DNA from: Zygnema cylindricum
Lineage: Eukaryota > Streptophyta > Zygnematophyceae > Zygnematales > Zygnemataceae
Length of the DNA: 52,233 bases
Reading direction: 5' to 3'
Assembly (NCBI GenBank): GCA_037447655.1
Contig: JBBHKE010002112.1
Coordinates: 15,001 to 67,233 of the forward strand
The position numbers and the translations under genes are program-made. Positions within the stretch are counted from its first letter, which is position 1, and every line of letters starts with the position of its first letter. Shown here in pieces: positions 1,092 through 52,233 of this stretch. The notes beneath the pieces were generated by a model. That model saw only the letters and a list, made by a program, of their open reading frames with translations. It was not told where the DNA came from and did no database searches.

Positions 1092-2761
1092 ATTCTACAT
1101 TAATTAGTGCGGCACTATTCTACAGTCCTAGTTCTTGCTGTATATAATAATTACAGAGCAGCCAGGTAAAGCTATTTGAAGATATAGTCGAAATGTTCTG
1201 AATTAGAAAGAATTTATGTTCGTAGATTCCGCTAGTAATAGGCATGTATCCAATTTTCTGCTTCTGCTTAAGTTGAATAAAGTCAAAATACTTACGATTA
1301 TCGCTTTATAGCAATGTTTACACATGCCAGTAACCTGTGCTAAAATGAATGAAGTGAAACAGATGACTAGTTATAATCGATCCTAAAAGCTGTATGTCAA
1401 TTCTCCCTTGGAAAATTTGATTATGTCGAGTTTCTTGACCATATTGTTTACAGAATTGTATGAAATTGCTAAATTTATACAGAAGGCAACCCATCATCAG
1501 CAGGACCATGGACAACCTCGACAGTTCATCTCGGCCAGTTTATGCCAAAATCTGCCGATTTAATCTTTTTTATAACCTCATTTGAGAGCTGATAGTGAGG
1601 AAACCTAATTTTCTGCATTATCAGCAGACACTGTTTGACAAATCTTGTATGCATTTGATACTTACTCAATTCTGCCCAAGAGCCAGGAAAACTCGTCCAA
1701 ATATGCGGAAAATATTGTACTGGGAAACAGAGCAAGAAAAGGCCTCGTGACACAAATTATCACAAATTATTATTAATAATCTAGGAAGGAAGTATGTGCA
1801 TATCTTTGATTGTCTACTAACTAGAGGCATCTATAAACCCATCAAAACTAAAATGTGACACCCTACAGCTCACTGGCGGAATACCGCGATGAAGGCATTG
1901 TGAAGAACAATTGCAGAAGCCTCAAGGAACCTTTGCATGCTGTGGAGATAGAGTGGAATTTTCCTTTCTGTCGTAAATCTTTTGCTCTACAGTTTCTGCT
2001 AGTCACCAGCCCAGTAATAACTCCCCAGTTTCCAGTTCCCGGGTGAGGATGTGAGTTTACGAGGAATATTACCGAGTGATAGTTTAACTTTAAATTGTGA
2101 CATTTCCCCCTCTTCATTGAGGACAGTTTTAAGGGTTTCCAAAATGAAACAAAAAGGTGGTTAACATATTTCTACTGGCCTACCCAAAATAATTTCTTGA
2201 ACCACTGGTGGCATTTTACACTAATTATTTCTTCATTGCCAATTTTTTTGACGAGCTTAACAATACAGCATAAATCTTCCATTAAAATTAGGAGAGAACC
2301 ATTATAAAATGCAAAACAGAGTAGGGCCGTCAACATGTGATTGCTGTCAGATGGCTACTACATCACATTAGAATCACCAAATTTTGATCCAAAAAAAAGA
2401 ACAAAAAAAAAAACTAATACCAGAAAGTAATTATCAGATACTGAAGAAAAACTTGGAAAATGTGCCAAACTATATCTCTATATGATATCGACATGATAAC
2501 GAGTTTCCACTATTACTATATCAACAAAAATTAAAAAATATCTGAGCATATACCTGGGTATTCAACGGCCTGAACATCTGAATAGGACAACAATGGAAAA
2601 TTCCAAATTTTATACCGTACTCTAGAATACCCAGATTACTTTTCCTATTCCTACAAAATACTAAATGAGGCCTTAACTGCCATGCTCATCCTAAATGGTG
2701 CAAATTTACTGCCAGACTGAGTATGAGAAGTGAAACTTACATGACCAGTCTGTTCATTACT
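1092..2761. other. Convergent intergenic region (3' flanks of NAT and ALDH3)
   Basis: This is AT-rich DNA between the stop codons of two convergent genes. An AATAAA at 1276-1281 (+) lies 185 bases after the NAT stop and could serve its polyadenylation. The short open frames here show no protein family, codon pattern or splice context that I recognise. I see no RNA gene. Confidence 0.5.
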
Positions 2762-8700: not shown

Positions 8701-9383
8701 TCTGGGAACCAATACAGCAGTGCAACTACAACAGGAATAGATTTTCCTAAAGAATTTCTGCATCAATTGGAGTGTGATTCAAAGAAATCCAAAAACCAAC
8801 CATGGAGTCAACACCTCACTGCATGGTGCTATGGATATGGAACTAATGGCACCAAAAAAAATCCACGTACATTCCACTTCCCTGCCAACCGCTATTAGTG
8901 TTGATAACACTAATTCACTAATTTTTGGCGCAAAATCACAAACTCCTGTTAAAATAGAATAACATCGAAGGTACGCACCAAAAGGATGTCATTAAAAAAA
9001 AAAAAACGACGGGGAAAACCAAACCAGAGGAAATGAAACAAACCAGCATTTAAACCTAAAACAAAAAAAGGATGGTTGATATTTTAAAAGAGCCACGTCA
9101 TAAACAAGAGCCTTAAAACACTTACATCACCAGTGAACGAAGTGAACGAGTTTTTCCCAAGGTCAAGCTCCATGCTCTTCGCCATGGCCTCCTCATTCTC
9201 GACCATCATCCTCTCGAATGCCATCAGCTGCTTCTCCCTCCACGCAACGCCTCGCGTCACATTGCTCTTCATATTCGTACGGATGTCAGCCACCAAGGCG
9301 GACGCCGCCTGGCTGTCGAGCGGCATTCCGCCAAACCCTAACTTCGAATGCTCAGCAACGCCTGCCAAGCGCGCAGACTCCAT
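2762..9383 (-). CDS. ALDH3: Aldehyde dehydrogenase, ALDH3 family; complete ten-exon gene
   Basis: The enzyme oxidises aldehydes to acids with NAD(P)+; ALDH3 members typically act on fatty or stress-derived aldehydes. Exons in gene order: 9383-9126, 7378-7310, 6873-6777, 6267-6061, 5938-5823, 5585-5484, 4761-4589, 4264-4174, 4026-3877, 2998-2762. All borders are GT-AG and phases agree; the sum is 1500 nt, or 499 residues plus stop, the usual size. Landmarks: SAWNFPF before residue 142, LKPSE 160-164, cofactor loop GSSQVG 211-216, catalytic Glu233 in LELGGKSP, nucleophile Cys267 in GGQTC, EIFGP 361-365 and [12 protein letters not shown] 427-438. The end after 478 is an Ile/Leu-rich helix that could anchor the protein to membrane, as in other ALDH3 enzymes. 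The start is the first Met of the exon 1 frame, and I see no clear transit peptide. Intron 1 carries a transposon fragment, introns 4 and 5 pyrimidine tracts, and intron 9 a Ty3 relic. Confidence 0.95.
3314..3391 (+). mobile_element. Ty3/gypsy integrase fragment inside ALDH3 intron 9
   Basis: A 26-codon plus-strand stretch reads [16 protein letters not shown] then YHPQTDGRS and meets a stop at 3392. This is the well-conserved gypsy integrase motif around the third catalytic residue (the STAYHPQTDGQSE region). The glutamate that should follow is lost at the stop. The downstream bases to about 3560 are probably the same decayed element but show no further motif. It lies antisense to ALDH3, within the 878-bp intron between exons 9 and 10. 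Confidence 0.75.
5631..6036. repeat. Polypurine tracts in ALDH3 introns 4 and 5
   Basis: Plus-strand positions 5631-5800 and 5941-6036 are almost pure G/A (GGGGGA, GAGAGG and GAAAGA units). They flank exon 5 (5823-5938) closely on both sides. On the sense strand of ALDH3 they are long C/T tracts. The long frames that cross this region are artefacts of low complexity. Confidence 0.85.
8885..8960. mobile_element. Fragment of inverted-repeat element family B in ALDH3 intron 1
   Basis: The stretch CGCTATTAGTGTTGATAACA and what follows match the start of the element at 29402, including the palindrome of AGTGTT and AACACT and the later ACAAA-rich part. The outermost CACCGCGAAT and the second terminus are missing, so this is a truncated copy. 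Confidence 0.5.
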
Positions 9384-9904
9384 TGCTGCAACTCACTCTG
9401 GCAGGCCGCCTGCCGACTGGCTCCCGAACTGTAGGGGAAGGAGGCGCAGCGACGGAGAGTTCGACCCTAAAAACGCGACACCGAGCCTGCGTCCGGTGCG
9501 GCAGTCTGCGACGGTTCGAATGCGAAAGCGCGACAGGGCAAGATGCCAGCCTGCGACGCGGCACAGGAGGTCTAACCTCCATACGTGAAAGCGCCATATC
9601 GCGACGTGCGCCCGGTTCGAATCGCAGCCAGTGGCAACGGTTGGTATTTCTACGTTTACACCTCGATACCGTACCATCCGCCCGGTTCAACTCGAGTCCC
9701 GTTTGTTTGTTTTACCTTCTGAATATTGAACTTTTGACGACGTGCATTTAAGGAACTTCAAAAAAATAGGGGGCTTTGTCATTTTGTTTAGGAGGAGTAC
9801 AATTTACGAGCTTTCTATTGGCGGACAGCTTCGTTACCGGAAGCTGACTTGAAATGTGATATCCAACAGTTTTCCATTTCAATCGTGCTTTGTACTTGGA
9901 TGGT
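9384..9904. promoter_or_regulatory. Upstream region of ALDH3 (5' UTR and probable promoter)
   Basis: This is a locally GC- and CpG-rich stretch just upstream of the ALDH3 start, unlike the AT-rich surroundings. Long open frames on both strands at 9133-9751 come from the high GC content and overlap the first ALDH3 exon; none shows a known family. No TATA box or defined operator can be placed with confidence. An inverted-repeat transposon starts at 9908. Confidence 0.4.
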
Positions 9905-10567: not shown

Positions 10568-10763
10568 TTTTGGTCGGTGTGAAAATCATTGACGATTTTT
10601 AACATCCGATCTTAGATCACGTGGTACCACTCAATTGTGAACACGTGGATTATAGACTGTGCAATTTTTGGTCGGTGTGAAAATCATTGACGATTTTTAA
10701 CATCCGATCTTAGCTCACGTGGTACCACTCAATTGTGAACACGTGGATTACAGACTGTGTGCA
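10568..10763 (+). repeat. 98-bp tandem duplication near the right end of A1
   Basis: A unit starting TTTTGGTCGGTGTGAAAATC is repeated at an offset of 98 bp with only a few differences. Element A3 (near 32740) has a single diverged copy of the same unit, so the duplication is specific to A1. Confidence 0.88.
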
Positions 10764-10842: not shown

Positions 10843-11692
10843 ACCATCGCGCATTTGATAATAAAATGTCCACCCTAAAAAAATATTGAATATTTATAAG
10901 TTCAACTCGACTATGCCTAAATGTACCCTAATTAATATTTAAAGTTCATATGGGTGGCTGTTATGACAATATTGAACAAAGCATAGTTCAAAAGTATGTG
11001 AAAGTACGCCCATACAATGTGCCTATTGTACGCAAAACATACAATATGACCTTAAGACCCATATTGTATTAGTCGCAAAATGAAAAATAATAGTAACACG
11101 GTTGAGTTGCACATCGATCGATAGAGAATTAAACGTCATGTCTAAATTTTGAAAAACATTTGGACACAAAAATATTTATCTGTGAGTTTTTAGGTATTTT
11201 TTATTTAAACCGTCAGATTTTGACGATCGGACGTTCGCTAATTAAAGTAGCGATTTAAGAAGATCACATGAAAAGCCCATAACACAACTTACGATAAAGG
11301 CGCCTTCAGAAGGCCTACAATAGAAACGCCTACTTTTGAACTATGGAACAAAGTCAAACAAGAAAACAGTCAAATTATTTTGGGTATACGCATGAGCTGT
11401 TTTGTATTACGACAGAAGAAATCAAATTATTTTGGGTATACGCATGAGCTGTTTTGTATTACGACAGAAGAAACGTCAGCAAGTACATAATTGTCATAAC
11501 TTTTTTACTAAATCTGTGCATGCATGTTAAGCGTTGGTTAGCCTTTTCGTTCACGTCTTTATTCCACAAGGCGGTCCTAGTAAACGTACGGACATGTCTA
11601 CTGGCAGGGTTTACTGCCGGGGTCTTCCATTATGTCGGTCCAGTAACAGGCCAGTAAACAGCCTCTCACCTGCGTTGGCTCATTTTGGTTGG
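10843..11692. other. AT-rich spacer with a 52-bp tandem duplication
   Basis: I see no gene here. Positions 11370-11421 and 11422-11473 are identical 52-bp copies (TCAAATTATTTTGGGTATAC and onward). The rest is AT-rich sequence without motifs that I can assign. Confidence 0.55.
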
Positions 11693-17108: not shown

Positions 17109-19463
17109 TTACGACGTCTTAAACATCACACATTGCCTTGTTGTGTCGAAGAGGTTCTCCGTATCGTCCGCCGGGACATTGAAAGCAACACCTTTATACA
17201 TGATTCTGAACACGGTAACGGGCAACATGACGCAACGGCTGCGGAAGTAATCGATGCCCGGAGTTGTTTGGAAGGTCCGGGCTTTCAAAACAGCATCTTC
17301 ACCATTTAGGTAAAATTGGTTTCCGACAGAGTTAGTAGCTGCCGGACATTCTCGGAAGAGAGCGGAACCGGACTCGTCCACCTCAACGTCAAGCTCATCT
17401 CCCGTCTTATTTGTCCTCAAACCGGTACTCAAACTCGTCCCCTCGCCGTTTACAAGCGCAATCGTTGGAATTTCGCTTTTGTATCCCGCAAAATAGAAGT
17501 CGCAAAGCTCCAAGGGAGTGGACGGGCAAGAGGTGTTGCATGCAGGAGGAGGTGGTGGTGACGGAGGGGGTGGGGGAGGAGGCGACGGTGGAGGAGGTGA
17601 AGGCGAAGGAGGGGGAGGAGATGGTGGAGGTGGGGGGTGGCGATGGAGGAGGTGGAGAAGGTGAGGGAGGAGGAGGAGAAGGTGGAGGAGGGGAAGGTGA
17701 AGGAGGAGGTGGTGGAGGCGATACGGGAAGAGTTTTAAAGGAAGTCGAACATGTGCAAGGTGCGGTGGAGGGGCCCGTGCCAAAGACAAGGCATCGGCGC
17801 TCGTCAGGGTAAATTTGCTGGTTTGTGTCGCCCAAGTTGAGGTTTAGTACGGTATTGCCGGTTGGGATTTGTACCGCGGTGAGAGGAATCACGAAACAAG
17901 AGTTCTGGAAGTAGCTCTTGGGTGCCTGCAATAGATGCCAAACCGGATCGCCTCAGCCTCAATTTCTAATCCCCGTAACGTGGTTATGACTTATGTGGAA
18001 TTTCAAGCTTCCATTCACTGTATGTTTGTACATTGCCTGCTCTAGTTACAGAAGAAAAAAAACCGGTTTAGGAACATGGACTGGCGAAATTGAAACATAG
18101 CGATCAATCTGTGACGGCAACCGTGTGCCAATGAGGTTCGATTTTGGATCCTTTCAATTTTTTAAACTTACGGAATTAAAGCTGCGGAACTTGATCTGAG
18201 CTGCTTGTCCGTTGACATAAAACTGGTCGCCAGTGCCGGTTCCCGCATTATCCGAGCAGAGGAACGAGGCCTCCCCGGAACTGTCGACTTCAATGATCTC
18301 TCCACTCACGGAGTCCATAACGTATGGCCCTACTCCCATGTCAGTCGAGCCGTCCAAACTGAAATGGACCAAAACTTTTGGGTCAGTTTTTTTTGTGTTT
18401 TTCAAATAAACACGCCTATGAAACGTGCATATCAAATAGATCAATGCTAAAATTTAATGCGTTTTTGTTTCAAAGAAGAAATGAAAACAAACAAAGAAAA
18501 TCCGATCGGGCTGGAATTACAGATTTCCTGAGCATTCAGAAAACATCTTTTCCCGCCAATATTGCAAAGCTCGAACATTGGCTGAAAAAAATAAATAGTT
18601 GTAGTAAGGTAGATCCAGATGCAAACAAAGGGAGACGATGTGAGGTAGAGAAACAGGAAAAGAAATGCGAGGAGACGACAGAGGGAGATGGGGAAAATAG
18701 AGATGAGGCAAGGGGGAAAATGGAAGAGAAGAGGTGAAGGTCGGAATTAATATTGTACCCACCATCCCGCCTCTATCATCTTCTCACTTTCCCCCACCCC
18801 TTCCACCCCTCTCTTCCTTCCGCAGATTCTATCGTTTCTCTCCCTCTCTCTTCGTCTTTGTTCTCCCCTCCCCTCATTCCCCCTCCATTCCCCCTAATCC
18901 ATTTCCCCTTTTCACCGCTACCTATCTCTCTGCCTTCATACCAACCCTACCCTCACTTTCTCCCTCCCTCTCTTCCTTCCTCCTTCCTTCCCTCCCTCCC
19001 TCCTTTCCTCCTCCATACTCTCGCCATTAATCCCCATCTTCTTATTCGTCGCTCTATCTTCCTCTAGCCTCTCCACTCCATTCCCGGCTGATGATTTCCG
19101 AGTCTACAATTTAAGCATTCAGCTGATGGCTTCCAGCTCTGCACATTCGAATCGATGCAGAGAATCCGCGCTTCCATGTTTTAATGCGGAAAATGGAGAA
19201 ACAGAGTCGGGTCGTCGATCCTACCTGATGCTTGGGATGGTCTCGTTTGTCGGGGAAAGGAAAAAGTCGCACTGAGGGAAGGAAGTGGAGGAGACTGTCA
19301 TCAAATTTCGAGCAGACGCGCGGTTCAACAGTTTTCCACCGTCCATCCTCGTTCCGAAACTGCGCGCAGCCTCGGCACAAAAAGGAGTGCGGCTCGTCGC
19401 CAACGCCACGACGCACATTACCAGGCTCCAACCGAGTTTGGGAGACAGATTTGACTTCGCCAT
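17109..19463 (-). CDS. Secreted Ser-Pro-rich protein with two related domains; frame broken in the linker
   Basis: Exons: 19463-19225, 18358-18172 and 17925-17109. Exon 1 gives a signal peptide (LGWSLVMCVVALA core) and the start of domain 1 (QCDFFLSPTNETIP). Exon 2 carries EVDSSGEASFLC and GDQFYVNGQAA; exon 3 begins APKSYFQNSC. Then comes a Ser-Pro linker (SPPPP units), followed by domain 2 with LCDFYFAG, EVDESGSALF, GNQFYLNGEDA, a CVMLPVT segment and CVMF near the end. The two domains align, so they arose by internal duplication. The layout, globule - SP rod - globule, resembles volvocine pherophorins, but I do not recognise a pherophorin domain. Coding length is 1243 nt, one base over a multiple of three. 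The frame shifts at a run of six G (17632-17637, + strand) inside the linker. This is either a sequencing error or a young null allele. The product is probably extracellular and hydroxyproline-rich. Confidence 0.72.
18597..19075. repeat. Polypurine then polypyrimidine tract in intron 1 of the Ser-Pro-rich gene
   Basis: On the plus strand about 18610-18735 is G/A-rich and 18765-19075 is C/T-rich (CTCCCTC, TTCCTCC units). Switching from purine to pyrimidine within one intron makes partial self-pairing possible. The Pro/Ser/Leu-rich open frames seen across it are low-complexity artefacts. Confidence 0.75.
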
Positions 19464-25003: not shown

Positions 25004-25775
25004 GGGTGCGTCTCCATGTACTTGAAACTTAGAGAAAAAACTTTGTTTTTTAGCGCAGATCCGACGGACCCGGATTTCGGGTGTCCCTATGTGTAACAAC
25101 GACATAGTTACTTAAGCGTGTGACGATTGTATACGCTGACAATTCCCGTGACGGCTGTCAACGTCTACATTCTGTGATGACGCACGTTATTTTTTGTAGC
25201 AGGTTGTGACGTCGCATGAGTTTTCGTGACATTGTAGACGTACCGCCATCCAGCCTGTGCCGTTTCACGGTTGAAGAAGATGCAATTTGCCTTTGCGTCG
25301 CATGTCCGCTCGACGTGAAATGGCATCGGATCTTAGACCCCTCGCGAAATAAAATCCGTACCTAGCGCAAACGGACAAAACCAAACAAAGTGTGTACTTT
25401 GTTTTGTCGTAACTGAAAGGAAACGGACAAAACCTAGCGGATCGTGCACTTTTCGTCGTCGCTTGAATTCTTTTAAAATTTCCTGGAAATTTCTTACACG
25501 TGCAACTACGTGTTTTTATTTGTTTTTCGAAGAATCTTTGTTTTAAAACACATCTTTCCTGTAAAGAAAAGTTTGAAGATAGACGTTTTTTGGCGTGGCC
25601 GTGGGTCGAAGAACACAAAACGACAATATGTAGTACATCTTAAATTCGATGATGACGCAATATGTACTTCATTTTTTCCTTTTTTTCGTACGGTTGCAAC
25701 TTAGGCAGTACGGCGCTAAGTTTTACAGGAAAACGACAGAAAAAAACCCTTACTTATGCACATGGGGACATACCC
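25004..25775. mobile_element. Inverted-repeat element C2 (PIF/Harbinger-like)
   Basis: The left end GGGTGCGTCTCCATGTAC and right end GCACATGGGGACATACCC are near complements and TTA flanks both (25001-25003 and 25776-25778). It is the same family as C1. It sits 30 bp after the hAT end and about 375 bp upstream of the PEX11 start, so it occupies the distal PEX11 promoter. It has no coding capacity. Confidence 0.78.
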
Positions 25776-26149
25776 TTAGTTCGATACGGAATGGAAGCGT
25801 GAACGATACCGTACACCTACCTAAAGGATTTGTGACATCTTCTGCCACGTCAGTATTTCCCTTTTCGATCTTAGATAAATGTCGAGAGGGGCCTCCTTTT
25901 TACGCCACGTGGACTTGCAAACGTCAACCTGGCTTTGTTGTCCACAGCGGGAGACCCACGGAGGGAAGAATCGATGAATCATCTATCTCCCTTGCCAGGC
26001 CGTACAGAAGCTGCCTCCACATTTTGCATCATGCAAGGGAAGCAAACCTTTGCTGCTTCCGGAGGGAGCATCGGTTCGCAGGTGAGTCGCAGGTCTTGCA
26101 CGAGGCGTTTGAAACTGTACACGCCGGGCTGTGCACCCCTGTATCCGCT

Positions 26150-27506
26150 ATGAGCAAAGGCGGCCGTCGAGCGGACACTCTCGATCAAACAGTCGCATTT
26201 CTGCAGAAAAGGGATGGTATCGACAAAACCCTCAAGATTTGTCGGTATTCGGCCAAACTAGCTCTTGCGCTGGCTCTGCGGGAATCCAAAACGGATATCG
26301 CGCAAAGGCTGGCGCGTTTCGAGTCCAGCGTGGGCGGCAGCCGCAAGGCGTATCGGCTCGGGAAGTTTCTGCAGAGTGTGAATACGCTGCGCAGAACGCC
26401 GCTAACGACAATCGAAGGAGTTTTGGAACTAGTGGCGACCACAGGGGAGGGTGTGTATTATTTCGTGGAGCAGTTTGTGTGGCTGGTAAGATCCTTAGTT
26501 TTATTTCCTTGTTTTTGTATTTATCTCTTTGTTTACCCTTCAGTTACGCTTTTTGTTTTTCTTCACGAAACAAAAAAAAAAAATCGGCTAGAAGGCTAAT
26601 TTCTAATGCCAGTTCTAAAGTCTGACGTCATCAGTGTTTGTTAAAGTCTTGAAAAGTTCTTCACATACAACAGTGACATTTCTTTTTGACCATCAACGGT
26701 TGCTGGCTTTTATTTGGTTTAAATAGTTTTTTTTTTTTCCATGGAGGGGAATGCATTTTTTTTCTGAAACAGTGAAAATGTGCTCCTATGACCTACAGGT
26801 TCATGAAAAAGTCCATGGTTATGACAAGCCTCAGTTTTAGTTTCATCCAGTTTTCTGGGCCGTTTGGGAGTTAGTAGTGTGTGAGTTTTTGCCAATTGTG
26901 CATCTTCACTGGAGTGCGGTAGATTTCTTATCACAAGCAAATGCTGGTTTTTGTCGGTTTATGGCACCAACGCGCATCGCAGTTAGCGTCAATGTTTTTT
27001 TCAGCACTTGGGCGGGAAAACCATCATGCTAACAGCGGGTGCACGGTGTACTGATGTGCATTTCAGTCCGTTGACCTGCGACACTGTTCTGTTTCCAACA
27101 GGTGAAAGCTGGAGCCATTGACAAGCACCACAGTGACAAGCTTCAAAAGATAAGTGCCTGGGCGGAATTCATCGGCTACTTTGGTTCAGTCGCCCTAAAG
27201 TCCCTTCATATGCTTTCGCTTATGGAGACAGAGGCTAAGCTTTTGACTGATTTGCAGAGAAATGGTGAAGGTCAGATTAATGTTGAGGAAAGGGAGAAGA
27301 CTTTGAGAAAACTTCAAGCTATTCAATTTAAGAAGTTCCTAAACACGCTGTCTGTGGTTCAGGATTTCGCTGATGGTTTGTTAGCCCTTAACGACATATG
27401 GGAGGGGAAAGGTCCTCTAGCGAGACCGGCAATGCTTGCCGGTGCCGGCCTGTTATCGGCTCTCATTAGTGCTCACAAAAATTGGCATTCTGTTTCACCT
27501 TCTTAG
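26150..27506 (+). CDS. PEX11: Peroxin-11, peroxisome proliferation factor; complete two-exon gene
   Basis: PEX11 proteins bind and elongate the peroxisomal membrane before fission. Exon 26150-26485 (112 codons) ends before GTAAGA, and exon 27102-27506 follows CCAACAG in phase 0. The product is 246 residues, the usual PEX11 length. Family signatures are clear: LQKRDGIDKTLKICRYSAKL near the N-terminus, the probable membrane-remodelling amphipathic helix, then SRKAYRLGKFLQSVNTLRR, GEGVYYFVEQFVWL at the exon junction, and a small-residue hydrophobic segment (MLAGAGLLSALISA) near the C-terminus. It ends in NWHSVSPS and has no terminal dilysine signal. The ATG at 26150 is chosen because conservation begins about 10 residues after it; the frame is open upstream but unlike PEX11. 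The 616-bp intron looks ordinary. Confidence 0.95.
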
Positions 27507-38035: not shown

Positions 38036-41000
38036 ATGGGCATGGTTGGTGGCTCATCCACACAAATCATTCCATGTGCGATTGCTTTCTTTATGCTCCA
38101 TGTTTTCGTTTTGGGAGTACGGTGTGTCGCGCCGCCTTCACAAAAATATGATCCAACGTTCAGCCGAGTGTTCCCAAAAGCCTACGTCGCAAATATTCCA
38201 GGTAAGCCCCTTAACCCAAAGTCCTCGTTCAATCAACTTTTAATGTTCTCAAATTTAGCCAATTCCCGTTTCAGATGATTATTTTTGTTATTTTCATAGA
38301 TTTGATGATGTTATGTAGTATGTCAACGGTCAATAATCGTATGCTCAATCATTTATTCCCAGTTGTGTCAATTATATTTTTATTTTATATACATTTTTTA
38401 CCAATGGAATCTTAGAGGTGCTGACATTGACAAAATTTTTATAACCCAACTATAATTGCATTGTCTCAAGTAACTTAAGATCGATGAGACGCCTAACGAA
38501 GTATCGTGTTCAAAGTCCAACCTTGGCTATTGGCATCACCATTTTTTTTTGGCTCGTACGAAAACCAACATTGTGTGATTATGGTCATAAAAGAGCATCT
38601 ATCAAAAGCTCTATCAAAAGCATAAAAGCTTCAAGAGGTATATAAATAGTGTAGTGTACGAAATGTGTGGGTCCCTACAAAAAATGCTCATTAATTCATA
38701 CAGAAGTACAAAAAAAGTGACAGACAATGGCGTCGACACAGGAAAGCGCACGTAGATTTGACTTTTAGGATTTATCACGAGAAAAAATCGCTCAAACCTG
38801 TTCTCACATGCTCAAACGTTGGCTTTGTAAATACAGGCTACAGCGGCTACACTACGGGAATGTGTACATAAATTAGTGTGATTTGTGTTAATTATCGTTA
38901 ATTTTTGTTAGGTTTAAGTCTGTGAACCCAAAATAACGTTAGTAACACTTTTTATTTCTTTACGCTAAAATACACTAACAGCGATTCACGGTGTTGTATA
39001 TTCTGTTTTCAAATCTTTAGAGATTATTTTCATTTTTGACAGGCACTTGTTTTTTTACCCCTTTTGACAGAAAAATCAGTATGAAATACCATTTTGTTAA
39101 CTTTTTTGTAGTATGTTCAAAGCAGATTAACGATGTCCATAGCCTTGGTCCCTAACTAATAAAGATGACACGTCAATGACAAAATGATTCTAACAAATCC
39201 TGTCCATTTGATTTGAAACTCGGGCAACCTTGATGTAATAACACGTCATAAGACCCATAACATTATGGCAAGTGTGCTCCTTTATTTCAAGGTTTCTTTG
39301 TCCTACATGATCTTCTGATGGATGTCATGCAGTCTGTCATTGTTGGAAAGGAAGTTGTTGCCTTTCCAACAGAGTGCACAGAGCACACTGTACGTTTAAA
39401 CACATTTGATGTTTTGTCGTTGGTGTTGAAGTGCCCAGAGAGTTGCTTTTAGGGTTAAACACATTTGATGTTTTGTCGTTGGTGTTGAAGTGCCCAGAGA
39501 GTTGCTTTTAGGGTTACAGACACTATATGAACGCTGGTTGTTTGGCCTCTGGCCATAAGATAGCATTAGTACCATTGGTTTCTACGTTCTTAACCTTCAT
39601 TTGGTAATCATATAACTTCCATCCACATTGCTCGAACCTAAATTCGAATTAATGGCACTCAAATCTAAAAAGCTCTTTATTCTACTAGCTACTGATGGTG
39701 TTCCATGCTTCTATTGTTGTCAAAAAAACGTGGAGTAATCCCATTGCTCCGTTAGCCTGTTCTAGAAACTAAACCATGTGAGGATGTCTATCTCTGTTGT
39801 AATTATTTACCACAGAAGTTTAACAGCTTGTAGCTAGCAGCCTTAGCATCCTGCAGCAGGCAGGGGTTACAGAGCAGAGTATACGGGACAAAAATAGTTT
39901 CTGGCTTGACTTAGAGGGACTAGATTTTGATTAAAATCTTCATCTCATGTTCTTTGGTTTTTTTCTCTCGAATTTGATCCAGTTAATTTGATTCTTGGTG
40001 ATTGACTGTTGAGTAAGATATGAAACCAATTCTCGCTCAATTGTAATATCGTCTTCTCAAGTGTATTTCTGCTATCGCTATCGTTTTGTTTATCTGTTCA
40101 TGGTGTCGAAGCCGTCATGTAGCAGTTGTTTTTGTTTGAGTGCCTGAGAGCGACAATCTTTGTGGTTTTTCTTCTAGTAAATTACGCCATGGGCCGTCCC
40201 GCGTACCAGAGCAGCACGTTTGCCAGTCGTGGAGTCCGCTATCCAGCAAACTTTGCAGTTGACGGCGATGTGAATGGAGTTTTCAGCGGCGGCAGCTGTT
40301 CACACACCTATTTGAATGCGACAACCAATGATGGCGAAACTGACCCCTGGTGGATGGTGGACCTCGGGAAATCCTCACAAATTGAGAATGTGGAGCTATG
40401 GGCCCGGGTAAACTGTTGTCTGGAAAGAATGATTGGGGTTCAAGTATGGGTGGGAACAAGCAAACGAAGGTGGGATAGGGACGGAAACAAAGAGTGCGAC
40501 TCTGCCAATTATTACAATGGATCCGGGGCTGCACGACCCTTTACAAAGACATGCTTGAGCTCCGGGCGATACGTTTGGGTACGCCTAAGTGGTCCAAATA
40601 GAATACTCTCACTCTGCGAAGTCCGTGTTTATGGCTATGGTGAGTTGGAAGATGCAATATCAAGTGAATGTGAGCAGACAGGCTCAACTATTTTCTTGTC
40701 ACTATCACAGAAATTGATCGTAATCCATCACGTCATCGCATGCGTTCATCATTTCCCGCATTTAATCTGCTTTAAGTAAGGATAGGATAGTGAATGGCAA
40801 AAGGTAAACTTTCCATTCTCGTCAGCAGTTGCAAAGGGCGATTCCTCCTGACGTTTGTGTTTTAATTAATATTTCTCGTTTTGATCTGAATGTCTACTGC
40901 TATTATTTTGAGTAGTTTTTCCCGTGAATTCTTAGCTATATGGTACGCAAAATTAAAAAAATGTAAAGTCCAACTGGGGGGGGATTGATTTAGAAATATG

Positions 41001-44000
41001 GTATTGGCGCAGTGTAAAAGCTACATTTCGTACTTCTATATTTTTTTCCTTTCTTTCCATTTAGACTGAAGTGTATATATGACAATCAGTCACCCGGATC
41101 CATTTCACCATGCAGATGGCCAAGCGTGCAAGGATGTTCTGTACGCCTACACCCCTTACGCCGACACGGACGTTGCCGGAAGCAACATCGCCTATTACGA
41201 TGCGAGCGTGGCAGAATGCCAAAGCAAGTGCGCAGAAGACTGCACCTGCGCTGGCTTTAGGATTCAAAATGAAACAAAATGTTGGATAAAGTCCAATACC
41301 GATAGATCATCTTGGTTAAAAGTGGGCTTTGGGTATTTGTACACAAAAATTCCAAGTAAGTGTTTCGTTTACTATGCATCGGACTTCTTCTATTGATTCT
41401 CTCAATCACTAATTTCGGTCCAGTACTTTGTTTGTGGTTCGTTTGTTGTATCTCTTCGCTCCGGAGCATCACATGTTTCTTTTTGACTCCTTTGTTATGA
41501 AAAGTGATGAATATTTTTCCAAAATAATTAATCATGTAAAATATGTGATTTAATTAGATTGTGCAAAAGTTAATTAGCTTTTGAACAGCTATTGGTCCTT
41601 TATCCTCCTTTCACCGCTTTCTTCCTTTCGCTCACAGGTAGTGATAGGCAAATGTCAACACTGATCGCTGACTCATTTGTTTAGCTTTCTTCGTATTGAA
41701 ACAGCGCTATGTTTCCTTTAGTATGATTGGTAGACATGACGACCAGCTTTCAATGACTAGGTCGTTTATAAATCCCTGCTCCGAATAAAATGGCATAAAT
41801 CTGAACTTTAGTGGGTAATCGGTCCTGTAATGGTCCGAAAAGTGGCCTAATGGGGCCGAAATGTGATGGTTATTTGGTTGACTCCGAGGGGCTGGTTGGA
41901 TTTTGTTTAGCAAAGAAGTCAATCGCAGTATTGGGGCATTCACACCATAATCAAATATCCATCTAAGGAGTACATAATAAGATAGTAGAGTTCAGATAAC
42001 CTAGTCACAATTAGAATCCACCACGCTAGTGACAGACTGTCCAAATTGCCAGCTTGCTGTATATATTGATTTGATTTATAAGAAACATGGGGATCTGGTG
42101 TAGTATGTCTTATTTTAGATGTTACATATTGTAAATGGTTAAGTCCGTCTTGATTCTTTGTTTAGTACGGAAAAAACAACGTGAATCTTGTTGAGTTGAT
42201 TGGTATTAGGGTTTGGTTACAGGCAAAATAGATGCAAGAAATGCGGCTTTATGTGAACCTTTTCCCTTGAAAACCTGGTTTTGTAGGCTATGGTGTCAGA
42301 GGAGCGAGAATTTGTTTCTTTTCAATCCATTTGATGATTGAAAGTTTACTCTTTTGATCTTCGAAGAGATCCTTTTATACAAAGTCGCACAATACTAATT
42401 AGTGTGGATTTTATCGTGCGCTTTAAATGCATTGTACTCGAAGATCCGTAAATCTGATGTTACGACTATCGCTGGGCAGTGAACAACAAAAGATACGTGG
42501 AACCAAATCGAAGTAATGGATCTAATCTTTTGTAATAGAGCAAAATAACAGTAGTGCACAAAAGACAAAAGGTACTGTAGTACGCGCGTAAGTAAATAGA
42601 TGCAAACAGAGACATTCTTGAAAAAATAGACTAATAGAGCCGTACATGCAAATTCAGGCGAGTGACAAATAAATGAATGTAACGGGACGTAAAATTCAGG
42701 TGAAATACCCTAGAGTAGGACAAGCATAAATTACCCTTAATAATGATTTCACTCTCAAGAATTATCTTGAAAGAAGTTTCTACAATTTTTCCTTGTCGTG
42801 TAACTTCATTTCTTTCGCACTAAGTGAGCTGCTCTGCGCGAACGACAATATTAGGCGTGTGCACAACACTTTAAACTACGCATTGCAAGCGTCACAATTA
42901 GTTTATCGATTAAATTGTCACAGTAAAAATCTCTCCGCCAAAATAACTTTATGCCAACTTCAACATTTACCTATATTCAATTCATATCAAATCAAACTCC
43001 AACTTGCAGCACAAAGTTTTACTTTCCTATGGTTTATATTATAAAACTTGTAGTATGGTTGGATTTGTTTTACAAAATTGCTCTTTCCTATAATGTTCAT
43101 TGCAGTTCATTCGTTTTGAATGTCAAAATTTAGTGTCTCATCGTCATGAATGAACCAAACAAAACGGTATTTCGTTACCTATGTTTGATTTTGTCTCACA
43201 CTGTTATTTATGAGATTGAGAAGGAAAAAGATGTGTGAAAGCTTTGTCCCACTTATCTGTATTTTGCTGTTTAAATTCACGTATAGTCAAAGAAACACAC
43301 ATTCCTAAGCTCTATAGGTAACTCTACCGAGCTCTACCAGATATTGTGTGGAAACCTGTACCCATGGTAATAGTATCAAGAGCTGAATCTGTGATAGATT
43401 ATGTTTTCGACTATATGGCTGTACAATGCCATATATGTTTCTATCTGTATTTCTCTTATCCAAATTCCAAACGTCATTCACCAGGTTACACTGCGTTTTC
43501 ATTTGCGGATTTTAGTTCATCTACATTTTTTACCTTGCGTGGATCATCTCAACTTGTGTACCCCCGACTTCAACTTACACCGGCTAGTTATTACAACGTT
43601 GGACAAGCATTTTATCGGAATCTGGTCCCTCTTCTCCGAGATAGTGGCACTGGCGGGTGTCAACCAGCTTCATTCAACGCGCAGTTCTCTTTCAGCATCT
43701 CCAGCAACAACAAACGGTGCCATGGCGACGGCATTGCCTTCACCATTCTTGGGTCAAACATTGAATTTTCCAAATTGGGAGGATCAGGTGAAGCACTTGC
43801 GCTGCAGTACACAGGTCAGCCTGTTGTGGGGAGTGTGAGCATTATCTTTGACACGAAGAGAAACAGCTACGATCCTCCTGGAAGATACGTGGGAATACGT
43901 GAAAGTTTTGCTTTTGCGCCTGTGGTGTACAATACAACGACTATTCTGGATGATTTCAGTCTCTCCATCAAGTACGCATGGGTGGAGTATGATGGCACAC

Positions 44001-47000
44001 GTCAAAGTTTGCAAGTGTATATCAGCAAACGGAATTCAAAGCCACCAACGCCTTTGCTTACATACAGGAAATCTCTTTGCGAGTTATTGAGGCCATCTGC
44101 CTGCGCCACGTGCCAAACAGTTACTCTGGCATACCTTGGATTCTCCGCCGGAACTAGTAACTGCGTCGACATTCATGGGATTCAATCTTGGAGCTTTGAC
44201 AGCAATTTCCCAGGTAGTATTGAACCCATTCGAAAGCATGTGAATAGCTTCTGTTTCCTCTAGCGATTGCAATTCGATCATAGGTAAATCACAATATTTT
44301 TGCTAGTCGTTGTATGTAATGCACTAGCTTTCTGTTCCTCCTCCGATTGTAATGAAAATGGAAGCGCACTTGTTCAAACAATTGATTGGTCAACGAATCT
44401 TAAAGTTGTGGTACAAGATCTTAATGATCACATTTGCTTAACAACCATCAACCTGAAATTGTAAAACAAAGCTGAATTTCCTATGTTATAAGTTATAATA
44501 TTTGTATAGTACTTTCCTGCAATCTAAATTAAAGTAATCGTACTGTTGTTTAACTTGTTGTGCAATTTTTGTATTTTTCTAAAGTATGCATCATAATTTT
44601 AAAAATCTGGTCCTTTGGCTTGACCATCACGCTACTATTGTACTTTTCATTTCTAGTTCACGTGTTGATTCACCAAACCTCAGTGATATCTGTCACAAAT
44701 TTTCCAAGCACGAATAGCGCATTCAACAATCAACAAACACCATCTCTTCATCAAACGCAAACCTTTATGTAACATTTCATGTTGGAGAAATAATATCTCG
44801 TTTAGATAGGCAATTGCGTGGGGTAACATGGAAAAGTTGAGGAGGTATTGCTGACATTGGAAGGGGTCTGAGAAAAGGTAGAAAACATGAAACTACTCGC
44901 ATGTACGGAATGTCCCCCATATCATTTTTTCATTTTTTTTTGTTTTCATTTTCTTTTCACTTTTATACATGAGTTACATATGGTCGTTTTTTTTCTAGAA
45001 ATATACTGGATTTCAATTTGTGATTAACGTGATTTTTTTTTTTTAGGAGGCCAGTTGATCAAATTTCTTAACCGATTTTCTCTTTTTAATATCTGAAGAG
45101 GTTCGTTAATCCACAGATAAATGAGTTACCTGGTTTGGACAAGCATTTAACAATGTGTAGCCCAATAAGGTCATGACAGCTAAGCGAGTGAAAGTCAAAG
45201 AGCTCATAAAACAGAATGTCAACGCAAAGGCAAACTTGACTTTCGTCAAAAAACAAATTCTTATCTAAAACTGCATATTTTTATAAAAAATAGAGATGAA
45301 TAAAAAATTATGTTTGAATAATAAAAACCCAAAGGAACCCTAATTAGGTGCAAAAATTGTCGTCATGTTCTTCCTTTTAGAATTGGTAGATGACCAAAAG
45401 TTAACCACATAAAATTAATACGTGAAACATATGTTTGTTGTTTTGGATGTTGCTATATAGTAATTATTGGTGTCAATTGCATAAAACCTACAGAAATATG
45501 TATGTTCTTATAGAGGTATACATAGCACAGAATCTGAAATCAAACAATTCAGCCTCTATTTTATGACGAATTCTCTCAAAAACACGCTTATGGTACTTAT
45601 AACTTACGGTAAACTAGGTTGTTTAGGGTTTTTTAAGCTAAAACGCGTGGAGTGAGCTAGTCTCGTCCGAACAAAATCTTACATTGATTTCCGTATTGAA
45701 GTTTCAGAGATTCTGTTTGTTTGACGAAATAGGGAGTAGATTCAAATATGTACATAAGAATTTACCAGCATATTCTGTACCTTGTTTTTATTAAAGTCGC
45801 CCTCTCTCCTCGCCCAATCCTATTCTTTCACATCCCTATTCAACTACGCCATCGACAACTCCATGTTATCCTCCCCTTCAGCTTGTTACCCCTATCTTCT
45901 CCACGTATTTCTTTTCCTTTATGTATCTTCCTCCCATTCTCAATCCTCCAACCTTGCCTCGAAATGATTGCAACAGAAAAATGGTTTTCAAAACAATAAA
46001 TTGCTTGCCACTAATGGACCTTCAAAGAATTCCACATTCTCGAAAGCATTGATGTTCATGTGGTAAGACATGGCTTGCCTGACGATGGGGCTTCTTCTTT
46101 CATTTTTTTGTAGTGTCGCAGTCACCACCGCCCCAATCTCCGCCCCCTTCTTCCTCTTCTCCACCCCCTTCCCCGGCCCCTCCTCCCTCTCGTGTCTCTC
46201 CTCCGTCTCCGCCTCCTCTCTCCTCTCCTCCCCCCCCTCCAACCCCTTCAACCTTTTATTCGCCCCCTCCTTCCTCTCTTCTTTCACCAACCCCTCGTCC
46301 TCCACCACTTTCTAGACCGCCTCCCCGCCGCCCTCCTCCACCCCCCCCTAAGCAACCTCCCCGACCACCTCCCTCCTCACCTCCCAACCCACCAAAGTTT
46401 CAACCTTCTTCACCTCCTCCAAATCCTCCACCTTCTTCATGGAGTCCTCTTCGACACCTCCTCGCCCCCCACCTCTTTCCTCTCCTCCACCATCTCCACC
46501 TCCTCTTTCCTTTGCCCCTCCACAATCTTCACCTCTTTGGGCCCCCCCTCCTCCCTCTCCTAACTCTCCTCCACCATCTTCACCTCCTCCCCCCCCCCCC
46601 TCCTACCTTTCCGCCCTCTCCTCCTCCACTTTTGTCTTCTTTACCAGGTTTTTCCACTTCTCCTCTTCCCCCTTCACCAACCCCTCGTCCTCCACCGCTT
46701 TCTAGACCGCCTCCTCGCCGCCCTCCTCCACCCCCCCCTAAGCAACCTCCCCGACCACCTCCCTCCTCACCTCCCAACCCACCAAAGTTTCAACCTTCTC
46801 CACCTCCTCCAAATCCTCCACTTTCTCCATGGAGTCCTCTTCCCCAAAGTTCGCCACCACCACCACAAACACCAGGTAATAGGTTATTCTATAATTTCTC
46901 AGCTTGTAGTACCAACTCTCCCTTCCCCCCCTCCGCCCTCACTTTAGTTGTTTTGTCGGTTTCATTTATTTATACTGAGTTCTAACTTTCAGTTTTTTCA

Positions 47001-48234
47001 TGTTCTTACATGTCACAAACCTTCTCACTTTCCACCACATTTTGCACCTTTCCCATTTTAATTTGAACTAGTGTAATACTATAAACAAACGGAAATCAAC
47101 CAAAATCAATTAAAATAGACAAGTGTCTAGTTATTCCCGTTACAGTCATGCACCATCATGTCAGAATTTCCATAGCTATTAGTTGTATTCTTGTCCGGCC
47201 AAAAAAGGGAGAAAGTTTCGTAGCAATGCAAGATAAAGAATTGTTAGCGAATGAGCATGGAGGTATATTGAAGATTTTCAATGGATGACGTGGGACCAGG
47301 AAGCGTCTTGCTGCGACTCAAGGATGGGCTGGTCGACCAGAATGACAAACTTTCCGCATGGGGAGATTCGCCGGATGTGTGCCAGTGGTATCAAGTAGTT
47401 TGCGAGAACAAGATTGTAATCAAACTGTATGTTTGTGGATATAATATTCATCTTGCGTGATTTATAACAACGAAGTTCTATAAATTTGAAATCTAAACCC
47501 AAAAACCCAAAAAGATGGGGGGGGGAGACGGTTTCCCTTGATTCCACCATAGTCTAATCACATGAGCCCTTGTCGGCACTTACCTTTCTGAGAACGAGAA
47601 CAACCCCTAGCTTATCTTGAGAGGAAAGAGCCGTTGGAGGACATTTAAAATAAAATAAGTATTTAGAGTCCAATCAATACAATTACGTTACCTGATTGGA
47701 TATTTGAACCACGATTTTCAATTCCAAACCCTCCGTGTACCAAGCTTATCTGATCAATTATCCTCAATATATGCACTATTTGTAAAATAATAAAGTGATT
47801 ATGAGAGGCTCATGTTTTTTGATGCAGGCAACTTCGAGGGCTTGGTTTTGGAGGGAACATATCGGAAGTTATAGGACTCTTGGATACTCTCGTAGAATTG
47901 TAAGTAGAGACATAAGCTCGGTTATGCTTAATTGGCGATATTAACATGTGTTGGTGATAAAATTTCGGTACACTTTCCTTTTAAAAATTTTGGGGGAATA
48001 TTCTTATTTTTGCATCAGCGATTGATGACGCTAAACCATAATGCTGGTAATGAATTCTCTTAAGTCACTTTTGATTTCATTTGAGAAGTTGTTCCCGAAG
48101 GAACTTGATAGCATGAGCTTAACATGATTATTACCATATTGTTTCATTGGTTTATCTTTCAGGGATTTATCTTTTAATGAGTTAAATGGACCCATCCCAG
48201 CGTCTCTGGGAAATTTACGAAAGCTTAGATCATT
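38036..48234 (+). CDS. Multidomain secreted or receptor-type protein: F-type lectin, PAN, L-type lectin, Pro-rich stalk, LRRs
   Basis: Exons: 38036-38201, 40178-40639, 41116-41355, 43485-44213, 46114-46875, 47300-47426, 47828-47899, 48163-48234; all GT-AG and in phase, 876 codons so far. Residues 1-55: signal peptide (AIAFFMLHVFVLGV). 56-209: F-type lectin, with GRPAYQSSTFAS, DPWWMVDLG, RVNCCLER and LCEVRVYG; the binding motif RxDx4R has Asn for Asp. 210-289: PAN/Apple domain (ECQSKCAEDCTCAGF). 290-532: L-type lectin (GDGIAFTILG, VSIIFDTKRN, WVEYDGTRQSLQVYISK, GFSAGTS...SWSFD). 533-786: Pro-rich stalk. 787-828: LRR cap (LLRLKDGLVDQNDKLSAWGD, CQWYQVVC). 829-876: two LRRs on 72-nt exons (DLSFNELNGPIPASLGNLRK). 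The PAN and LRR-cap acceptors are chosen partly by phase. The end is uncertain: a terminal exon 48359-48419 would close at 896 residues with no membrane helix, or a helix and kinase may lie beyond the window. The product probably binds carbohydrate at the cell surface. An ATG at 47281 could instead start a separate LRR gene, but it lacks a signal peptide. Confidence 0.8.
38860..38993. mobile_element. Probable diverged family B element in intron 1 of the lectin gene
   Basis: The right end ACTAACAGCGATTCACGGTG matches the B2 right terminus closely. Near 38870, AAATTAGTGTG may be the eroded left side. The flanking TA is absent, so the borders are uncertain. Confidence 0.45.
39396..39513 (+). repeat. 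Two 59-bp tandem copies in intron 1 of the lectin gene
   Basis: A 59-bp unit containing CACATTTGATGTTTTGTCGT and GTGCCCAGAGAGTTGC occurs at 39396 and again at 39455, with no difference visible apart from the edges. Confidence 0.92.
46281..46843 (+). repeat. About 170-bp direct repeat within the Pro-rich exon
   Basis: Positions 46281-46453 and 46671-46843 are near-identical copies (both include CCTAAGCAACCTCCCCGACC and CCACCAAAGTTTCAACCTTC), offset by 390 bp, exactly 130 codons. Both encode the same block (RPPPLSRPPPRRPPPPPPKQ and onward to WSPL). The repeat enlarges the stalk and keeps the frame. Confidence 0.9.
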
Positions 48235-50230: not shown

Positions 50231-52233
50231 CTAACTAACAGGTCTTCTTGAAGACATGAAAATCCAACCGGTTATGCTCCTCCTTGTGTCGAGGTCGTGG
50301 TCAGTATGACATCTCTTAAAGGCCTCTTCTCTCATTTCGGTATCAAGTTTGAACTTCCAACACCTAGGACTTTTTTTTAGACCGTATATGGATTTGTGTA
50401 GTTTACACAACATGTGTTCTTTTCTTGGTTCTATCATGCCCTGTGGTTGTTCTATGTAGACTTCTTCCTCAAAATCCCTATTTTAAAATGCAGTTTTGAT
50501 ATCTAGTTGATGCATCTGCATACCCTTTGCTGCCCCTAAGGCTATTAAAATTCTGAGACTATTAAACTTCACTACTGGTGAGAAAGTCTCAGTGTAATCA
50601 ACCCCGGCTTCTTGGGAATACCCCTTAGCTACTAACCTCGCTTTATATCTTTCCACTGACCCATCTAATTTCCTCTTAATCTTAAAGACCCATTTACAAC
50701 CCACAATATTTTTCTCTTCTGGGCGTTCTACTAAGGAGGTCCAAGTTTTGTTTTTGATCAGTGATTCGTATTCTAATTCTATTGCCATTTTCCATTTCTG
50801 AGAATTAAAACTCTCAAAAGCTTCATGAAAGGTTTGCGGTTCTCCCTCTGCCGCCATTAAACAATAAGCTAAACCCACATCTCCCGTTTTCAATTAGCCG
50901 TTTTGGTTTAGCACGTATCCATTAGAGACTCTTTGAGGGGTTACCTTCAATCTCGATTGTTGAATCATATTTGGAGAGATTGTACTTTGCGAAGGTTGTG
51001 GTGCCGGTAACTTCTCCACTGGTAAAGATTGAAAGGTTGATGTTCCACTGGGGATGACGGAAGTCTGAATTGGAATGGAAATTAGTGTGGATGACGAAGG
51101 CTCCACTTCATGTTCTTTGCCTGGAGTACCTGGTGTCTGTGGAGACCCACTTTCCAATTCTTCTTGATTGTTAAAGAGAACAGTGACAGTCTCTTGTTTT
51201 TCGTACCAAGGATCAAAATTATCTGTCACATCTGAATTATTTTCCTTCCCTTCATCCACAGTCACATCTCGACTAACATGAACTTTTTGTGTAATTGGGT
51301 CATAAATTCTGTAAGCTTTTGTATTTGTGACATAACCTACAAAGCCACCAGTCCAACTCTTCTTGTCAAATATCTTTCTATTCGGTGTTGGGATGTGAAC
51401 AAAGGGTTTACTTCCAAAAACTCTAAAATGTTTAACTTTTGGTTTAAAGCCTGACCAAGCTTCTTTAGGTGTAATATATTTCAGAGAAGTACTAGGAGAA
51501 CGGTTTTTCAAATAAATTGCAGTAAGGATAGCTTCAGCCCATAGGTTTTGATCCAATTTTGCACTATGTACTAAACAACGTGCAATTTCAACCAAAGTTC
51601 GGTTAAGTCTTTCTGATACTCTCTTTTGTTGCGGACTATAAGCTACTCTAAATTCTTGCTGTATCCCCCAGGTTTTGCAGTTTTCCTTAAAAGCATTAAT
51701 GGTATATTCCCCCCCATTATCCGACCTTAAAATCTGGATCCGCTCTCCTGCCTGATTTTCTACCATGGTTTTAAACACTCTAAATTTCTCAAGGGCTTCA
51801 CCCTTAGATTTCATAAAATACACCCATACTTTTCTAGTGCATTCATCTGAAAACGTGATGAAAAATCTAGAAACTCTAAGACTTAAGGTGTGAGGACTGC
51901 TCAAGTCAGAATAAATAAGCTCCAGCTTCCTTCTATGTTTAGGTTCATCATCTTTATGAAAAAGAAGCCTTCTCTGCTTACCTTGAGCACATCCTTCACA
52001 CACCTTAAGGTTGTCTTTGGCGTTGACGTCTTCAAGTCCTTTCACCATCTTCTTTTCGATAAGTCGTTTGAGATTTTGCTCTCCCAGATGACAAAATCGC
52101 TGATGCCATAGCTCCAAAGTATGTGTTTTTTTGCTGAAATTCATCTGTGCATCTTTGTGCTTCTTTGCTGAAATTCATCTGTGCATCTTTTTCATCCAAA
52201 CGTAGAGCAAAAATATTCCCTTCCGGATATCCA
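50231..52233 (-). pseudogene. Ty1/copia pol polyprotein, disabled; continues off the right edge
   Basis: Reading right to left: GAG-pre-integrase with an HxxxxHL...CEGCAQGK zinc finger, then the integrase core. The acidic residues are in IYSDLSS, RSDNGGEYT and SERLNRTLVEIAR. It goes on to a chromodomain-like FVGYVTNTKAYRIYDP stretch and a Ser/Pro/Thr linker to 50897. Reverse transcriptase begins after an in-frame stop at 50894-50896: CKWVFKIKRKLDGSVERYKA, ARLVAKGYSQ, then LDIKTAF, which meets another stop at 50480-50482. The continuation EEEVYIEQPQGM and KSIYGLKKSPR leads to CHTDHD and jumps straight into the RNase H piece LDTRRSITGWIFM. The whole catalytic palm with the YVDD motif is therefore deleted. 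A 34-bp tandem duplication at 52131-52198 adds a frameshift. It is a dead element. Confidence 0.92.
52131..52198. repeat. 34-bp tandem duplication in copia pol
   Basis: The unit TTGCTGAAATTCATCTGTGC and the bases after it occur at 52131 and 52165. The offset of 34 is not a multiple of three, so the copia frame upstream of it (GNIFALRLDEKDAQMNFS) is put out of phase with the integrase frame. Confidence 0.88.

What the first reader, a model, noticed from the sequence alone, without database searches (positions are those of the whole stretch)
38036..48234. Single gene joining F-type lectin, PAN/Apple, L-type lectin, Pro-rich stalk and LRRs
The exons are seen directly and their splice phases fit from the signal peptide through the second LRR. 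F-type lectins are common in animals and sporadic elsewhere; L-type lectin and LRR ectodomains are standard in plant receptors. I know of no described receptor that stacks two unrelated sugar-binding folds, a PAN domain, a rigid Pro-rich rod and LRRs. It may be a new class of wall-sensing or immune receptor, or a large secreted adhesive lectin. Whether it is one transcript is inference.
Basis: partly seen in the sequence, partly recalled or inferred. Interest (0 to 1): 0.9.

Follow-up and report, generated by a model that had tools for sequence, protein, structure and literature searches.

The report
Algal gene fusing two lectins
This alga, probably a close relative of land plants, seems to have a family of secreted proteins built like beads on a string from sugar-binding and other pieces; the gene here carries an unusual version, which looks more like a wall or mucus protein than the new kind of receptor first proposed.

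Summary
The exons are real. Signal-peptide-like, F-type lectin, PAN-like, L-type lectin and Pro-rich exons join in phase 1; three LRR exons (LRRNT plus two repeats) follow. The order is not chance: 23 of 81 F-type hits in this genome, the window and its near-copy included, have an L-type hit downstream on the same strand within 8 kb, against 0.08 expected; 15 of 23 PAN hits lie 0.4-0.5 kb after an F-type hit. The doubtful step is Pro to LRR: the LRR acceptor is poor, but a diverged locus (C535) repeats L-type, Pro-rich, LRR with an LRRNT exon of equal length and phase. One gene is likely; no transcript was seen.

At nine of twelve other F-type loci read, papain-type protease exons follow the lectins. 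No kinase was found near any F-type hit or this LRRNT exon type; one L-type hit (C2055) has a kinase 7 kb downstream (list not exhaustive). Best reading: a secreted or wall-bound glycan-binding mosaic protein of an exon-shuffled family in a streptophyte, probably zygnematophyte, alga. Lectin_legB domain diversity in Zygnema is published (PMC11096116); this architecture was not seen in the papers searched. The 3' end is missing.

The parts
38036..38201 (+). Exon 1: start codon and signal-peptide-like hydrophobic N-terminus (judged by eye, no predictor run)
   Evidence: same ATG and donor in near-copy C1657, 4 mismatches in 166, all 4 nonsynonymous
40178..40639 (+). Exon 2: F-type (fucolectin-fold) lectin domain, phase 1-1
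   Evidence: Pfam PF22633 4.9e-14; PDB 3cqo 7.2e-31; model of mean pLDDT 77 from 7 sequences, whose top 11 PDB matches are F-type lectins or fucose-binding modules; 81 hits in the genome
41116..41355 (+). Exon 3: PAN/apple-like domain, phase 1-1
   Evidence: PAN_1 4.9e-4, below cut-off; found downstream of 15 of the 20 nearest F-type hits, this one included; dN .045, dS .140 against C1657
43485..44213 (+). Exon 4: L-type (legume) lectin domain, phase 1-1
   Evidence: Lectin_legB 9.8e-32; Wisteria agglutinin 2.6e-9; dN .022, dS .046; 83 hits in the genome
46114..46875 (+). Exon 5: Pro-rich linker, phase 1-1, with a 390-nt expansion relative to C1657
   Evidence: read-through tail has 9 nonsynonymous and 0 synonymous changes, so the donor is probably used
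47300..47426 (+). Exon 6: LRRNT domain, phase 1 in, phase 2 out; weak acceptor
   Evidence: LRRNT_2 3.2e-8; acceptor score -10.6; same phase and 127-nt length at C535; dN .255, dS .225 against C1657
47828..47899 (+). Exon 7: first LRR (72 nt, phase 2-2)
   Evidence: dN .061, dS .435
48163..48234 (+). Exon 8: second LRR (72 nt, phase 2-2); last exon found
   Evidence: LRR_1 2.3e-4 for the joined E6-E8 piece; dN .040, dS .059
50486..52174 (-). Copia-type retroelement pieces at the contig end, beyond the last LRR exon; not part of the gene
   Evidence: rve, gag_pre-integrs and SH3_retrovirus in 50894-52171; 50486-50893 assigned by eye from its translation

Best explanation
One gene, cut off at the contig end, of an exon-shuffled family of secreted mosaic lectins in a streptophyte (probably zygnematophyte) alga. 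Shown: symmetric phase-1 exons for F-type lectin, PAN-like, L-type lectin and Pro-rich linker, then an LRRNT and two LRRs; paralogues in the same order. Inferred: the protein is exported; its two lectins bind different glycans of the alga's own wall or mucilage, or of partners or microbes; the Pro-rich part, perhaps hydroxyproline-glycosylated, anchors or spaces it in the wall; the PAN-like and LRR parts give protein contacts. In many sister genes the same lectin head is followed by a papain-type protease, which it would steer; this member carries LRRs instead and would act as an adhesive or recognition scaffold. It is probably not a receptor kinase.
For: Phases and exons. F-type to L-type linkage 23 of 81, none on the opposite strand, one upstream, expected 0.08. 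PAN after F-type in 15 of 23 PAN hits. L-type upstream of the LRRNT exon in 4 of 26 such exons (window, its near-copy C1657, C2550, C535), so 2 of 24 besides the window and its copy; expected 0.018 for all 26. C535 repeats L-type/Pro-rich/LRRNT/LRR1/LRR2 and goes on to five LRR-like frames (by eye; four of them match the window's LRR2 at 2e-4 to 0.002) and a weak EGF-like piece. Papain-type exons at nine of twelve other F-type loci read. dN below dS in PAN, L-type and E7.
Against: The E6 acceptor is poor. E6 dN is not below dS, and E6 differs more than its flanking introns; exon 1 shows only nonsynonymous changes (4). No third LRR in either copy. No transcript. In C1657 about 10 kb of inserted DNA separates E6 from E7. 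The F-type fucose motif deviates: RxN for RxD, and 33 rather than 24-26 residues after His. The Pro-rich frame of C535 has no certain phase-1 donor (by eye). No LRR was found after the lectins at the twelve other F-type loci read. Secretion and anchoring were not tested.
Confidence: 0.6

Rival explanations
1. Two neighbours: a lectin gene ending after the Pro-rich exon, and an LRR gene or decayed LRR fragment that begins near 47281.
For: Weak E6 acceptor; E6 dN/dS near 1; no LRR beyond the second; no LRR hit after the lectins at the 12 other F-type loci read downstream in whole or part.
Against: L-type/Pro-rich/LRRNT order with an LRRNT exon of equal length and phase at C535, with more LRR-like frames behind it; L-type then LRRNT also at C2550, by coordinates only. 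No signal peptide before E6 conserved in frame between the two copies (by eye). The read-through tail after E5 shows no constraint.
Confidence: 0.25
2. Ectodomain of a receptor-like kinase whose membrane helix and kinase lie beyond the contig end.
For: LRRNT and LRRs resemble ectodomains of plant LRR receptor kinases (GSO1 6.5e-52, which sums many repeats; SERK1 1.9e-18). L-type lectin plus kinase exists in Zygnema (PMC11096116, passage). One L-type hit of this genome, C2055, has kinase hits about 7 kb downstream on the same strand.
Against: No kinase hit after LRR2 in window or C1657. LRR-kinase loci of this genome such as C805, C1296 and C1521 match the LRR query inside open frames of about 900-1140 residues, unlike this exon type. 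C535 has a weak EGF-like piece after its LRR-like frames. C1657 reaches telomere-like repeats 4 kb after LRR2. The kinase list is incomplete (134 of 757 candidates scored).
Confidence: 0.1
3. A recombined, perhaps non-functional chimera, possibly near a chromosome end.
For: Telomere-like repeats at the C1657 contig end; copia pieces; gene body about 96% identical between copies while collinear flanks are 86-91%; Pro-rich frame slip.
Against: All exons compared keep open frames and splice sites in both copies.
Confidence: 0.15

Closest known systems
F-type lectins (fucolectins: FBP32, eel AAA)
   Same: Sequence, predicted fold, and a CC pair with the basic residue after it
   Different: Arg-x-Asp is Arg-x-Asn here and His lies 33 residues before Arg; one exon of a mosaic protein
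Legume (L-type) lectins and L-type lectin receptor kinases
   Same: Lectin_legB above cut-off; FDT..N..DP kept in the alignment to Wisteria agglutinin
   Different: In that alignment Ile and Tyr stand where Wisteria agglutinin has Glu and His (metal ligands by recall); no kinase found
Lectin_legB domain combinations in Zygnema (26 architectures, PMC11096116, passages read)
   Same: Same domain in many combinations in a probably related alga
   Different: The passages found do not mention F-type lectin, PAN, LRR or papain partners; supplements and figures were not readable
Algal peptidase C1A plus LysM proteins, LysM plus fucolectin (PMC6362431, passages read)
   Same: Similar building blocks to those of the paralogues
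   Different: F-type with L-type lectin not mentioned in the passages; the window gene has no protease found
P0011, an unnamed 1425-residue metagenome protein
   Same: Its Pfam list joins the F-type profile (PF22633, PF00754) with LRRNT_2 and LRR_1
   Different: Also CUB and LamG; no Lectin_legB, and its LRRs precede the F-type part (by eye)
LRX / extensin-LRR wall proteins (LRX1 named in PMC6027541, passages)
   Same: Pro-rich and LRR parts in an extracellular protein
   Different: Order reversed (recalled) and no lectin head (recalled)

Membership tests
F-type lectin | F-type fold and sequence homology | tested here: met
F-type lectin | Fucose motif HX24RXDX4(R/K) (PMC5712786, passage) | tested here: not met
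   window reads H-x33-RVNCCLER; 5 of 20 nearest copies read H-x26-RxDCCxxR. Filed as an F-type-fold domain, not as a proven fucose lectin
F-type lectin | Fucose and calcium binding | not testable with these tools
   needs protein
L-type (legume) lectin | Lectin_legB profile over its cut-off | tested here: met
   110.8 against 26.3 bits
L-type (legume) lectin | Metal and sugar residues | tested here: inconclusive
   FDT..N..DP kept, Ile for Glu and Tyr for His in the alignment; roles of the residues recalled
PAN/apple | Pfam cut-off | tested here: not met
   20.3 against 21.4 bits; called PAN-like; position conserved in paralogues
LRR receptor kinase or LecRLK | Kinase domain in the same gene | tested here: inconclusive
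   none after LRR2 in window or C1657; none near F-type hits in a partial kinase list; the contig ends
LRR receptor kinase or LecRLK | Transmembrane helix | not tested
   no predictor run; gene incomplete
Lectin-papain mosaic family of this genome | F-type, PAN-like, L-type head | tested here: met
Lectin-papain mosaic family of this genome | Papain-type peptidase | tested here: not met
   no papain piece in the window at E 1e-3 nor after LRR2 in window and C1657 (best 0.55); the gene is incomplete

The most novel reading that the evidence does not exclude
The alga uses an exon-shuffled, diversifying set of dual-lectin mosaic proteins, some steering a papain-type protease and some carrying LRRs, to recognise cell-surface sugars, for instance when filaments pair and remodel walls in conjugation; such a glycan-guided protease and scaffold family would be unlike known plant lectin receptors.
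Probability: 0.2. Interest if true: 0.85.

Novelty: new variant of a known kind. Interest (0 to 1): 0.6.

Why it matters
It shows symmetric phase-1 exon shuffling, best known from animals (recalled), building lectin mosaics in an alga near the root of land plants, and it ties F-type lectins, which the review PMC5712786 (passages) reports absent from higher plants, to legume-lectin and LRR parts. Lectin labelling summarised in PMC11449217 (passages) shows mannose/glucose and fucose epitopes differing between vegetative filaments and conjugating papillae in some Zygnematophyceae; a protein family with candidate binders for both would make the molecular side of that testable.

Tried and rejected
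Receptor kinase: looked for kinase and LRR continuation in the window, the C1657 copy, paralogues and the genome; the only lectin-kinase neighbourhood within 20 kb is an L-type hit on C2055. GPI-like tail by read-through of exon 5: 9 nonsynonymous, 0 synonymous changes, so treated as intron. A further exon after 48234: stops at different places in the two copies, judged by eye, not pursued. Independent signal peptide before exon 6: frames not conserved, by eye. Database relatives: the full model found 13 proteins, none with both lectins in its Pfam list (7995 candidates scored); the L-type exon alone found none among 385 candidates. Organism: PEX11 of the window is 83% identical to an unnamed sequence and 54-58% to entries that I read as Mesotaenium, Spirogloea, Closterium and Physcomitrium (two of these labels recalled); 352.8 Mb in 2689 contigs resembles, but does not equal, Zygnema cf. 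cylindricum SAG 698-1a_XF (359.8 Mb, 3587 scaffolds, PMC11096116). So zygnematophyte is inference. LysM-like pieces: two gave no Pfam hit, one E 0.013; the ricin-B-like piece E 0.012, both below cut-offs; the papain N-terminal exon alone gave no Pfam hit.
Full report
Observation. Scripted splicing of the exons gives an open 876-residue model: signal-peptide-like start, F-type lectin, PAN-like, L-type lectin, Pro-rich, LRRNT, two LRRs. Introns 1 to 5 are phase 1, LRR introns phase 2. Pfam supports F-type/F5-8C, Lectin_legB, LRRNT_2 and LRR_1 above cut-off; PAN_1 is just below. The first lectin matches solved F-type lectins, and a model from seven sequences (mean pLDDT 77) has F-type lectins or fucose-binding modules as its top 11 PDB matches. 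To keep the frame the LRRNT exon must start at 47300, not 47281.

One gene, lectin part. The genome (G000, 352.8 Mb, 2689 contigs; the window ends its contig) gave 83 Lectin_legB and 81 F-type hits (lower bounds). 23 of 81 F-type hits, the window and its near-copy included, have an L-type hit downstream on the same strand within 8 kb; one has an L-type hit upstream and none on the opposite strand; 0.08 expected by chance. PAN-like exons were found downstream of 15 of the 20 nearest F-type hits, this one included, and 15 of 23 PAN hits have an F-type hit within 2 kb upstream (given 16 of the 81 F-type hits). F-type, PAN and L-type exons fit phase 1 on both sides where I read them, though automatic site assignment was doubtful for several. 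So F-type, PAN and L-type form one gene.

One gene, LRR part. The acceptor at 47300 scores below all 40 family acceptors (rough profile). Between the two copies E6 has dN .255 and dS .225, unlike PAN (.045.140), L-type (.022.046) and E7 (.061.435); E8 is .040.059. Against that, a whole-genome search gave 86 LRR hits (150 of 373 candidates scored), of which I took 26 as this LRRNT exon type; 4 of the 26 lie within 6 kb downstream of an L-type hit on the same strand, 0.018 expected (given 8 of 83 L-type hits, those on the contigs concerned): the window, its near-copy C1657, C2550 and C535, that is 2 of 24 others. At C535 an L-type exon (43% identical) is followed by a Pro-rich frame, an LRRNT exon of the same 127 nt with a phase-1 start, then LRR1 and LRR2 (LRRNT_2 1.7e-8, LRR_1 1.1e-5, Lectin_legB 4.4e-10). 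Behind them are five LRR-like frames, seen by eye, of which four match the window's second LRR at 2e-4 to 0.002, and an EGF-like stretch below cut-offs (E .0014 and .0028). I favour one gene, with the E5-E6 junction as its weakest link.

The near-copy. C1657 is collinear with the window contig upstream (86-91% identical at the places compared), about 95-97% identical over the lectin part and 82-91% over the LRR part: allelic or homeologous. It keeps exon 1, an in-frame Pro-rich exon of 372 nt and the LRR exons, with about 10 kb between E6 and E7. Homology stops about 520 bases after LRR2, and the contig ends in ten TTTTTTAGGG-like units 4 kb after LRR2.

Paralogues. Twelve other F-type loci were read downstream in whole or part. 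At nine, papain-type exons follow the lectins: six with catalytic-region exons (one C1824 locus, C1773, C1482, C569, C1385, C2211) and three where only the papain N-terminal exon was seen, by tblastn with pieces of the same family (the other C1824 locus, C2027, C1687) (PF00112 for C1824 and C2211). C2211 lacks an L-type hit. The other three (C1032, C1607, C1340) are a diverged F-type/Pro/L-type form without papain in the 6.5-8 kb read. EGF-like pieces follow the papain at C1824, C569, C1385 and C2211, PAN at the first three (C1824 by Pfam, the others by similarity), LysM-like pieces at the first three by similarity. Catalytic Cys, His and Asn contexts were seen by eye only. No papain piece was found in the window.

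Kinases. Of 146 kinase hits (134 of 757 candidates scored), none lies on a contig of this LRRNT type except C1607, about 100 kb away, and none within 80 kb of an F-type hit; one L-type hit, C2055, has kinase hits about 7 kb downstream on the same strand and may be a lectin receptor kinase.

Mechanism. Shown: architecture, recurrence, and dN below dS in several exons. Inferred from the families: export, glycan binding by two lectin folds, wall spacing by the Pro-rich part, protein contacts by PAN and LRR. The F-type motif departs from HX24RXDX4(R/K) (PMC5712786 passage), so sugar specificity may differ. I rate the secreted or wall-bound scaffold at 0.60, two genes at 0.25, recombined chimera at 0.15, receptor kinase at 0.10 (readings overlap). 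On recheck the C2055 neighbour raised the last from 0.08 and lowered the first from 0.62.

Known or new. Papers were searched; passages were read in PMC11096116, PMC9915684, PMC6027541, PMC5712786, PMC6362431, PMC10318531 and PMC11449217. Lectin_legB in 26 architectures in Zygnema, C1A with LysM, and LysM with fucolectin are in print. F-type with L-type lectin, PAN and LRR was not seen in those passages or listings; a metagenome protein (P0011) joins F-type and LRR profiles. Figures and supplements were not readable, so this is no proof of absence. Hence a new variant of a known kind.

Noticed in passing
L031 1-105 (contig C1657 start): Ten head-to-tail units of T5-7AGGG (8 of 10 TTTTTTAGGG) at the very end of the contig; could be a telomere with an unusual unit.
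   Followed up: partly
L033, reverse strand 2-4030: A Pro-rich frame of about 1340 codons after the L-type lectin exon of the C1687 paralogue, far longer than the window's linker.
   Followed up: no
G000:C2055:10562-19326 (+): L-type lectin hit with kinase hits about 7 kb downstream on the same strand; possible lectin receptor kinase.
   Followed up: partly
window 17112-17952 (-): Pro-rich stretch joined to Cys-containing sequence, reminiscent of algal matrix proteins; no Pfam hit.
   Followed up: partly
window 25634-27503 (+): PEX11 gene in two exons; best named relatives are streptophytes, among them Closterium and Physcomitrium.
   Followed up: yes
window 2765-9392 (-): Pieces that look like an aldehyde dehydrogenase gene; a Pfam hit was obtained for 5915-6328, the rest is by eye.
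   Followed up: partly
window 39396-39516: 59-base tandem duplication in intron 1, 100% matching.
   Followed up: no
window 10568-10759 and 11370-11473: Tandem duplications of 98 and 52 bases, 97% and 100% matching.
   Followed up: no
L039 1696-1956 (C2211): Weak ricin-B-type lectin piece (E .012, below cut-off) between PAN and papain, perhaps a third lectin fold in the family.
   Followed up: partly
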